Shown one piece after another: positions 3,285 through 8,661 of a DNA stretch of 64,000 bases. Position 1 is the stretch's first letter; each line of letters begins with the position of its first letter. This stretch comes from Deltaproteobacteria bacterium (GTDB lineage: Bacteria; Myxococcota_A; UBA796; UBA2385), in NCBI GenBank assembly GCA_018401435.1, contig JAGYJW010000020.1:45554-109553 (forward strand), read 5' to 3'. The position numbers were made by a program, and so were the translations under genes. Below the pieces are notes generated by a model. That model saw nothing but the letters and a program-made list of their open reading frames with translations, was not told the origin of the DNA and made no database searches.

Positions 3285-4563
3285 ATGCCGACCGCTGTCG
3301 AGCTTGGAAGCCTGTTGGCAGACCTCTTCGAAACTGAGGACCTGAAGAGGTTTGTCGAAGCCACCTTCGGGCGCGGGGTGCGGTCCGAGATCGAGTGGAT
3401 TGGATCAGGGAGTATCCAGGCCTGGAAAGCGGCGGGGGCGCTGGAGCGCCGGGGTCTTGTGGGGCCGGAACTCGCTGCTGCATTGATTCGGGTCCTGCCT
3501 GGTCAGGCAGACGCCATCCGCCGCTGCTTCGGCCTGCCGCAGGCGCAGTCGGGCTTGGCATCGGCGGCGGTGGCGCAGCAGCTGCCTGCTGCTGAACCCA
3601 ACCGGGACGGCAGCCTCGGCCACGCTGCTGTGGAAGAGGCGACCACCCCTCCCGCATCGGGGCCAGGGACCCCGCCGATGGATCGCGACCTGGGTGCCAT
3701 CCACGACGCCGTCGCAAGTGGCCACCTGGTCGTGGTCGCCGGCGCGGGTGTGGCGGCGTGGACCACCACCACGGGCAACCCGCCCCGCCCGGCGCCGACG
3801 GCGCTGTGGAGGGGCCTTCTGGAGTCGGGGGTGCAGCAGGCGAAGCGGATTGGAAATATCGACGACAGCACGGCCGCCCTGCTGCGCATGAATCTCGGCC
3901 ACCCGGACGGTTCGATGCTGGTGCCGGCAGCCAGCCGGATCGCCGACGCGCTGGTGCAGCACGCGCTCTCGTCGGGCGTGGCTCCAGCATTCTATCGGCG
4001 CCCTGCAGCCCCATCGCCCAGCCCTCATCGAGGCCTTGGGTGGGCTGGCCTGCCCCATCGCCACCACCAACTACGATGGTCTCGTCGAGAGGGTGCTCAG
4101 CCGGCGAGAGCTGCTCTGGACCGAAGTCAACAAGGTGGACCGCTGGCTGCGCCGTGACGACCCCGGCGTGCTCCACCTGCACGGCCACTGGGAGCACCCC
4201 CGGTCCGTTGTATTGGGCACCCTCGACTACCACGCCGTCGCCAGCGATTCCTACGCCAGCGCGGTGCTGCGCTCCCTTTGGATGGATCGCACCCTGCTCT
4301 TTGTTGGCTGCGGTGGCACCCTGGCCGACCCCAACCTGGGGGCGCTGATTCGCTGGGCGGCGAGCACATTCAGCGGGGTCGCGCGCACCCACAAGCTGCT
4401 CCTGCGCACCGATGAGGCGCTGCCGGTGGATCCGCAGCTGCTGCGAGACGCGCGGGTTGATGTCATCCGCTACGGCTCCGAACACAACGACCTGCTCCGC
4501 TACTTGCAGCGCTGCGCCCCCCGTGCGGGCGGCAGCGGGGTCGGTGGCAAGGAGGGCGACTGA
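3285..4563 (+). CDS. EAD1-like effector-associated domain fused to a SIR2-like domain (apparent frameshift near 4010-4036)
   Basis: N-term ELGSLLADLFETEDLKRFVEATFGRGVRSEIEW...AWKAAGALERRGLVGPELAAALIRVLPGQADAIRRCF (EAD1 pattern); then HLVVVAGAGVAAW...LACPIATTNYDGLVERVL...DPGVLHLHGHWEHPRSVVLGTLDYHAV...LFVGCGGTLADPNLGALIRW (SIR2-like). Confidence 0.75.
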
Positions 4564-7500: not shown

Positions 7501-8661
7501 TCCACATCTACGGCCGCGACCAAATCGTAGAGTACAAGACGGTCGTCGCGCAATGGTACCGCGTCTGCCACGCCTTGCCGCTCCGGGTGGTCATTGTCCG
7601 CGTGACGACGGGCGAAATCGCCTGTCGAGTCTACTTCTCCAGCGACGCCACCATGAGCCTGAGGAGATCTGAGCCTACGCTCTCCGGTGGCCCATCGAGG
7701 TCACCTTCCGCGACCTCAAGCAGCACCTCAGCTTCCGCCGACCCCGAACCGGAAGAGAGGGCCGCAGTCAGGCACGCCCCCTGGGTGGGCCTCCTCTTCT
7801 CCATCACCGTCCTCTCTGGTACGACAGCGTTGGCCACGGGTCCGCCTTCGACTGGGTACTGCGCCCCTGGTACCGCCAGCGCCGAAGCCCCTCTTTCCAG
7901 GAGGTCCTCGCGACGAGCAGGCGAGCGGCAGCCGCGTCGGCATTTGTTGATCAAATGTGCTGGTGCACTTCGGCAGCAAATCGGAGGGTCACCACTTGCG
8001 GAAGACCCACGGCATCCTCGTCACGATGCGCTGCGTGATGGAGAGTCGAAGACTCCGAAACACGAGTCGAACGCGGGGACTTCTCCTCTTTCGGCGATGG
8101 CGTCCCAACAGCCGACCAGGACGCCCACCCGGCCTACAACGTGACCTGGTGGGAGGCCGCTGCCTTCGCGGCCTGGATAGCGACCCTGCGCGACGACTGG
8201 GGTGGCTGTCGCCTGCCTGCCGACGTCGAGTGGGAGTACGCCTGTCGCGCGGGCTCCCAGGGTGATTATTGGTCCGGAGACGGAGCGGAGGCCCTCGATA
8301 AGGCTGGCTGGTACGGCAGCAACAGCGGCGGGCATCCGTGGCCTGTGGGCCAGAAAGCACGCAACTCCTTTGACCTGTTCGATGTACACGGCAATGTCTG
8401 GGAGTGGTGCGGGTCGCCCTGGGTGGACGTCCTTGTTGCCGCTGCTGCGGCTGCTGACGGAGGTCTCGTCCACCACGCGCCGGCAGTTGCGCCGCCCGCC
8501 GCGGACCCCTCTGCGATGCGGGTCCTCCGCGGCGGCTCGTGGAACTTCCCGGCCGCGGACGCGCGTTCCGCCTTTCGGGGCAGGGTCCGGCCCTCGAACC
8601 GGGACGTCAACGTGGGCTTTCCGCCTCGCCTCCCACCAGCCGGTGGACGCTGGGACCTTAA
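4543..8661 (+). CDS. NACHT/STAND NTPase with C-terminal FGE-sulfatase (CLec-fold) domain carrying VR1; DGR target 1; frameshifted and interrupted by an IS at 6536-8068
   Basis: Walker A WVLEGEPGAGKSTLLKM, Walker B VVLLLDGADEVDQ, LTNPLLLTLVAVLVV, FRHRALREHLAASRIAEL; FGE start IWREIPAGEGVIGSPEGVDHRDERPRFRL...PVTNSLYECFDPGH; after the IS, PAYNVTWWEAAAFAAWIATLRDDWGGCRLPADVEWEYACRAGS...FDLFDVHGNVWEWCGSPW...[25 protein letters not shown] start at 4543 would overlap the SIR2 gene stop. Confidence 0.75.
6536..8068 (+). mobile_element. IS701/IS4-like DDE transposase insertion (degraded frames) inside the FGE domain
   Basis: Fragments across frames: VSLDDTRWRRKG/PRVWGIGNHR, HRPWALPVLFRLYRA, ARELVQLVASWVKTRRIRVLGDSAYCCAEV, YGRDQIVEYKTVVAQWYRVCHALPLRVVIVRVTTGEIACRVYFSSDA; imperfect terminal inverted repeats GACTGCGTGTTTCG (6536-6549) and CGAAACACGAGTC (8056-8068); FGE homology resumes on both sides. 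Confidence 0.75.
8506..8641 (+). repeat. DGR variable repeat VR1
   Basis: Aligned to TR 10016-10150: 11 substitutions, all at TR adenines, none elsewhere before GTGGGCTT; a +1 T and three substitutions in the 3' GC-only end. Confidence 0.95.

What the first reader, a model, noticed from the sequence alone, without database searches (positions are those of the whole stretch)
3285..8661. DGR target 1 is a NACHT protein next to an EAD-SIR2 gene: a self-diversifying NADase-STAND immune-type sensor?
The sequence shows EAD1-like + SIR2-like domains (3285-4563), then a NACHT NTPase (Walker A GEPGAGKST) ending in an FGE-sulfatase/CLec domain whose hypervariable tip is VR1. SIR2 and NACHT/STAND proteins are established anti-phage and conflict effectors/switches, and DGR-diversified conflict-type sensors have been reported in multicellular bacteria. 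Inference: the VR-bearing lectin-fold domain is the ligand sensor, NACHT the oligomerisation switch and SIR2 the NAD-depleting effector, giving a bacterial receptor with somatic-like diversification.
Basis: partly seen in the sequence, partly recalled or inferred. Interest (0 to 1): 0.88.

Follow-up and report, generated by a model that had tools for sequence, protein, structure and literature searches.

The report
Self-diversifying NACHT immune sensor with SIR2
A myxobacterial-type genome carries a retroelement that rewrites the tip of two immune-like sensor proteins, one of them encoded just after a SIR2 (NAD-destroying type) gene that overlaps it; the class of system is known, the SIR2 partner looks new, and the genes only look broken because this stretch of the assembly is full of sequencing errors plus one inserted mobile element.

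Summary
The core observation holds. Gene A (3285-4563) has a strong SIR2_2 domain with ThsA-like catalytic Asn/His. Gene B (4544-8661) is NACHT plus FGE/C-type lectin with VR1 at its C-terminus. TR (10013-10151) differs from VR1 and VR2 only at TR adenines within the repeat core. Target 2 (11296-14559) is nSTAND1-FGE. "EAD1" is not supported. The frameshifts are almost certainly assembly indel errors: contig C21 of the same genome holds a 99%-identical allele, uninterrupted and in frame up to just before VR1. The insertion is real (exact empty site in C21). A same-order genome holds the same DGR intact: NACHT-FGE target, helix-turn-helix gene, Avd, TR, RT. Relatives fuse TIR or phosphoesterase domains to the same NACHT-FGE core. 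So this is a Myxococcota member of the known DGR-diversified STAND conflict sensors, with a separate SIR2 effector gene, a pairing not found in the papers held or in 222 related loci. Immune function, NAD depletion and retrohoming are inferred, not shown.

The parts
3285..4563 (+). Gene A: N-terminal helical, adaptor-like region (about 3285-3560, unassigned) plus SIR2_2 domain; frameshifted at about 3966-3976 in the window, in frame in contig C21 from there on
4544..8661 (+). Gene B (DGR target 1): GTG start overlapping gene A's stop by about 20 nt; NACHT about 4799-5254, helical arm, FGE/C-type lectin about 6380-6535 and 8073-8661
   Evidence: intact allele L012:579-2957, which runs off its contig just before VR1
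6538..8068 (+). Insertion sequence (DDE_5 transposase family) inside the FGE domain; target duplication TCTGA (right copy one base short); exact empty site in contig C21; clean copies C156:21622-23194 and C61
8506..8643 (+). VR1, variable repeat of target 1; extra T at about 8621 shifts the frame (probable assembly error)
8837..9854 (-). DGR reverse transcriptase; aligns end to end with the intact RT of L113 (165/304 identities) but with 16 apparent frameshifts and no in-frame stop
10013..10151 (-). Template repeat (TR), rich in AAC codons
10160..10549 (-). Avd-like accessory gene (7 apparent frameshifts); the L113 counterpart matches the NCBIfam Avd model at 31 bits, below its 80-bit cut-off
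10552..11174 (-). Second accessory gene with a helix-turn-helix-like start (by eye; 6 apparent frameshifts); same position in L113
11321..11459 (-). VR2, variable repeat of target 2
11296..14559 (-). DGR target 2, intact ORF (real start probably near 14181): N-terminal helical adaptor-like region, nSTAND1 NTPase, FGE/C-type lectin

Best explanation
The locus is a diversity-generating retroelement serving two STAND-NTPase sensors with C-terminal FGE/C-type-lectin domains. RT and Avd copy TR with errors at adenines and the copy overwrites VR1 and VR2, changing about ten residues on the face that is the ligand site in solved DGR lectin-fold proteins (TR and VR pattern shown; retrohoming inferred from family knowledge). 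When the altered lectin tip of gene B binds a foreign ligand, the NACHT module oligomerises (inferred) and activates the SIR2 protein made from the overlapping upstream gene A, which hydrolyses NAD+ and stops or kills the cell (inferred from ThsA-like catalytic residues and from relatives that fuse a TIR to the same core). The frameshifts in the window are assembly errors; the insertion sequence is a real variant that inactivates target 1 in that allele, while an uninterrupted allele is present in the same assembly.
For: SIR2_2, NACHT and FGE above curated cut-offs. Counterparts of the ThsA catalytic Asn and His (N262, H299 in gene A) conserved in 32/32 and 31/32 homologues (the ThsA residues themselves are from my own knowledge); ThsA and FAM118B are the PDB hits. 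TR/VR adenine pattern. Window RT groups with same-order DGR RTs (support 100/99) and with a Chromatiaceae DGR RT (99/98). L113 has the same gene order, target-HTH-Avd-TR-RT, with a NACHT-FGE target and 94% of TR/VR mismatches at A. TIR-NACHT-FGE homologues at 36-40% identity over at least 96% of the query. SIR2 of this subfamily fused to NACHT, nSTAND1 or AAA NTPases. TvpA, a DGR variable protein, is the best PDB match of an FGE profile (8e-59) and of gene B's FGE; target 2's FGE model matches 2y3c with TM 0.72. Clean allele C21. Errors: the IS copy is only 91% identical to two identical intact copies although C21 shows the insertion is recent; 53 small contigs duplicate larger ones at 97% or more with 261 gap openings against 173 substitutions.
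Against: No direct evidence of immune function, NADase activity, ligand binding or retrohoming. Gene A and gene B are separate proteins and no interaction is shown; no related locus pairs SIR2 with this DGR, so the pairing rests on one locus. C21 stops at 8447, so no clean sequence of VR1, RT or Avd is held, and a real loss of RT function cannot be excluded from this assembly.
Confidence: 0.6

Rival explanations
1. Dead element: RT, Avd and target 1 are genuine pseudogenes interrupted by an IS, and only target 2 survives with a frozen VR2.
For: The window shows 16, 7 and 6 apparent frameshifts in RT, Avd and the HTH gene, frameshifts in genes A and B, and an IS in the FGE. PMC10907252 describes degenerate DGR loci next to complete ones.
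Against: All non-adenine bases are identical among TR, VR1 and VR2 in the repeat core; no in-frame stop codon in RT, Avd or HTH; C21 is in frame; the IS insertion is recent yet its copy is 9% different from intact copies, which drift cannot give; indel-dominated differences occur assembly-wide.
Confidence: 0.12
2. SIR2 gene A pairs mainly with target 2 (nSTAND1-FGE), or with both targets, through related N-terminal adaptor regions, rather than only with gene B.
For: The N-terminal regions of gene A and target 2 share a weak similarity (local score reached by 1 of 2000 shuffles). Target 2's nearest homologues carry a phosphoesterase-like region (weak Pfam Metallophos match in P0038, 16.4 bits, below the 21.5 cut-off) where target 2 has only the short helical region, so its effector may come in trans; gene B has no such region. 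PMC10907252 describes EAD8 shared between targets and a nearby trypsin-like effector.
Against: hhalign probability is only 8-21% for gene A versus target 2; gene A overlaps gene B and lies about 7 kb from target 2 on the other strand.
Confidence: 0.25
3. The FGE/STAND proteins are not immune sensors but diversify recognition of other ligands, such as neighbour or kin signals, in a social or predatory bacterium.
For: Relatives attach kinase and phosphoesterase domains to FGE or NACHT-FGE modules, so signalling other than cell death is possible. STAND-linked CLec domains have not been characterised experimentally (PMC10907252).
Against: SIR2 and TIR partners are typical of abortive defence; a SIR2-STAND protein, Avs5, is a proven antiphage NADase (PMC12931631).
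Confidence: 0.22

Closest known systems
DGR-diversified STAND conflict sensors of clade 5D (Thiohalocapsa PB-PSB1 DGR 3 and DGR 6; PMC10907252)
   Same: [quoted passage not shown] effector gene beside them; the window RT groups with a Chromatiaceae DGR RT recovered here (L064)
   Different: Effector here is SIR2 (SIR2 is not mentioned in that paper's main text); no EAD8 or EAD1 match; host is Myxococcota; extra HTH-like accessory gene
Avs5 (SIR2-STAND antiphage NADase; PMC12931631)
   Same: SIR2 plus STAND logic
   Different: Avs5 is one polypeptide with a C-terminal repeat sensor; here SIR2 and NACHT are separate genes and the sensor is a DGR-variable FGE domain
ThsA of Thoeris
   Same: SIR2 fold and catalytic Asn/His
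   Different: ThsA is activated by a small cyclic signal (own knowledge); gene A has no second domain match and sits with a NACHT gene
TvpA of Treponema denticola (PDB 2y3c)
   Same: FGE-subtype C-type lectin DGR target; aligned through the VR
   Different: TvpA is a single-domain protein without an NTPase

Membership tests
Diversity-generating retroelement | TR/VR pair differing at TR adenines | tested here: met
   11/11 and 9/9 core differences at A
Diversity-generating retroelement | DGR-type reverse transcriptase beside TR | tested here: inconclusive
   Homologue present end to end (165/304 identities to L113 RT) but not an open frame in this assembly; 16 apparent frameshifts, no in-frame stop
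Diversity-generating retroelement | Avd or other accessory protein | tested here: inconclusive
   66/116 identities to the L113 Avd-like protein, which itself is below the NCBIfam cut-off (31 vs 80 bits); frameshifted here
Clade-5D type DGR-STAND sensor system | Two targets, each STAND NTPase plus CLec with VR | tested here: met
   Gene B NACHT-FGE with VR1 and target 2 nSTAND1-FGE with VR2
Clade-5D type DGR-STAND sensor system | RT in that clade | tested here: inconclusive
   Groups with same-order RTs and a Chromatiaceae RT (99/98); the published reference tree was not rebuilt
Clade-5D type DGR-STAND sensor system | Multicellular host | not testable with these tools
   Uncultured Myxococcota-type genome; lifestyle unknown
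NACHT (PF05729) | Score above the gathering cut-off | tested here: met
   28.1 vs 26.7 bits in the C21 allele
SIR2_2 NADase (ThsA-like) | SIR2_2 domain with catalytic Asn and His | tested here: met
   70 bits; N262 and H299 conserved
SIR2_2 NADase (ThsA-like) | NAD+ hydrolysis | not testable with these tools
   Needs an assay
EAD1 (PF19955) | Match to the EAD1 model | tested here: not met
   No match in gene A, target 2 or the genome; profile-profile probability below 1%
Avs5 | SIR2 and STAND in one polypeptide | tested here: not met
   Stop of gene A and start of gene B overlap, identical in the clean contig C21
Formylglycine-generating enzyme | Catalytic cysteine pair near the C-terminus | tested here: not met
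   In the alignment of target 2 to FGE 6muj the segment with the cysteines (GGSYLCHDSYC) is matched by VR residues without cysteine

The most novel reading that the evidence does not exclude
One SIR2 NADase serves two independently diversified sensors, a NACHT and an nSTAND1 protein, through shared adaptor regions: a small bacterial receptor network in which a retroelement keeps generating new sensor tips for a common NAD-depleting executor.
Probability: 0.2. Interest if true: 0.78.

Novelty: new variant of a known kind. Interest (0 to 1): 0.55.

Why it matters
If right, it joins three known modules (DGR-variable lectin tip, NACHT switch, SIR2 NADase) in one locus and extends DGR-diversified STAND sensors to Myxococcota with an effector whose readout, NAD+ loss, is easy to assay. 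That would make the open question of whether STAND-CLec proteins are antigen sensors directly testable. It also warns that DGR loci in long-read assemblies can look pseudogenised through indel errors.

Tried and rejected
Pseudogene reading of the locus: rejected as the likeliest reading on C21, IS divergence, absence of in-frame stops and TR/VR identity. A genome-wide codon-frame HMM to map frameshifts was too noisy to delimit the bad stretch (about 10 suspect sites per 100 kb everywhere). EAD1 membership: rejected. Hairpin downstream of the VRs: stems predicted but no more stable than shuffles (z -0.8 and -1.0). Rfam and tRNA scans empty. The second RT of the genome (C161) as a helper for this TR: the TRs are only 76% identical, so cross-action is unlikely. 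Solvent exposure of VR residues could not be measured: the VR part of the full-length target 2 model is of low confidence and coordinates are not given. Alignment to TvpA places the variable positions in the TvpA C-terminal VR, and variable residues of the solved DGR lectin-fold proteins are solvent exposed (PMC6328139). PADLOC and NCBIfam gave no model above its cut-off for gene B; EruA (41 bits against 1000) is only a NACHT-level resemblance.

Full report
What was claimed and what is there. The window is contig C113:45554-109553 of a 7.1-Mb, 204-contig genome. A relative in the same order is a named Myxococcota MAG (L017 is identical in sequence to G023:C28). Gene B begins at a GTG at 4544, overlapping gene A's stop, and has NACHT and FGE domains. 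VR1 (8506-8643), TR (10013-10151) and VR2 (11321-11459) form the DGR repeats, with every difference inside the core at a TR adenine. Target 2 (11296-14559, opposite strand) is nSTAND1-FGE.

The window copy is broken, and why. Reading frames in the window switch in gene A, switch twice in gene B, and a 1.5-kb insertion with a DDE_5-family transposase splits the FGE domain. RT, Avd and an HTH-like gene can be aligned end to end with their counterparts in the intact DGR of L113, but with 16, 7 and 6 apparent frameshifts and no in-frame stop; an intact control RT gave 3, all near its dissimilar end. Three facts say these are assembly errors. First, contig C21 of the same genome carries the region 3976-8447 at 99% identity, in frame and without the insertion. 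Second, C21 shows that the insertion is recent, yet the inserted element is 91% identical to two copies that are identical to each other and intact; drift cannot do that. Third, 53 of 99 small contigs duplicate stretches of larger contigs at 97% identity or more with more gap openings (261) than substitutions (173), 18 of them without any substitution, as in a long-read assembly with incomplete polishing. The insertion itself is real: a short target duplication (TCTGA, the right copy one base short) and an exact empty site in C21. So two alleles of target 1 are present in the assembly, one uninterrupted as far as C21 reaches, one interrupted.

Homology. Gene B's closest relatives are TIR-NACHT-FGE proteins at 36-40% identity over nearly the whole query (P0001, P0002; the TIR of P0002 is below the Pfam cut-off, 22.7 against 28 bits). 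In the same order, related proteins place a phosphoesterase before NACHT-FGE, or a kinase before FGE. L113 is an intact DGR with a NACHT-FGE target whose N-terminus has no Pfam match. Gene A's SIR2 has 32 homologues, several fused to STAND or NACHT NTPases, and counterparts of the ThsA catalytic residues are conserved. Target 2's closest homologues share the nSTAND1-FGE core and have a phosphoesterase-like N-terminus (weak Pfam match in P0038). The FGE domains match TvpA best among solved structures by profile, and target 2's FGE lacks the FGE cysteine pair.

The adaptor. EAD1 is not supported. Gene A and target 2 share a weak similarity in their N-termini, and target 2's N-terminus is modelled as helical at low confidence; a common adaptor would fit but is not established.

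Mechanism. Shown: TR/VR adenine pattern, domain content, overlap of genes A and B, conserved catalytic residues, relatives with fused NADase-type effectors. Inferred: retrohoming activity, ligand sensing by the lectin tip, NACHT oligomerisation, NAD+ depletion, defence role.

Comparison with the known. PMC10907252 describes DGR-diversified NACHT and nSTAND1 targets with FGE domains and nearby effectors, proposed as antigen sensors; PMC7159879 describes the adaptor logic. Neither main text mentions SIR2, and a full-text search pairing DGR with SIR2 returned no paper on such a system as judged from titles, abstract starts and term counts, one of the six being opened; supplements were not read. 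Avs5 is a proven SIR2-STAND defence (PMC12931631). Among 222 related loci fetched here none has a SIR2 gene beside the FGE/STAND genes. The locus is therefore a new variant of a known kind.

Noticed in passing
L015 (G000:C161:52000-62000): Second, intact DGR in the same genome: FGE target with VR (2598-2722), HRDC-like gene (by eye), Avd (72.9 bits to the NCBIfam Avd model, cut-off 80), RT of 324 aa, TR (4768-4892).
   Followed up: partly
whole assembly G000: Half of the contigs are under 4 kb and 53 of these duplicate larger contigs with indel-type differences; this may inflate the 6.25% contamination estimate and create false frameshifts elsewhere.
   Followed up: partly
window:6538-8068; C61; C156; other places listed: DDE_5 insertion sequence present in about a dozen places in the genome; target duplications TCTGA (window) and TCAGA (C156).
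   Followed up: partly
L108, L109, L114, L115, L116 (same-order genomes): Clusters of FGE-ended NACHT, phosphoesterase and kinase proteins whose last ~35 residues differ in the VR-like segment although no TR/VR pair was found beside them.
   Followed up: no
G000:C112 about 125-137 kb: Long array of repeats about 75% alike, matched many times by small contig C45.
   Followed up: no
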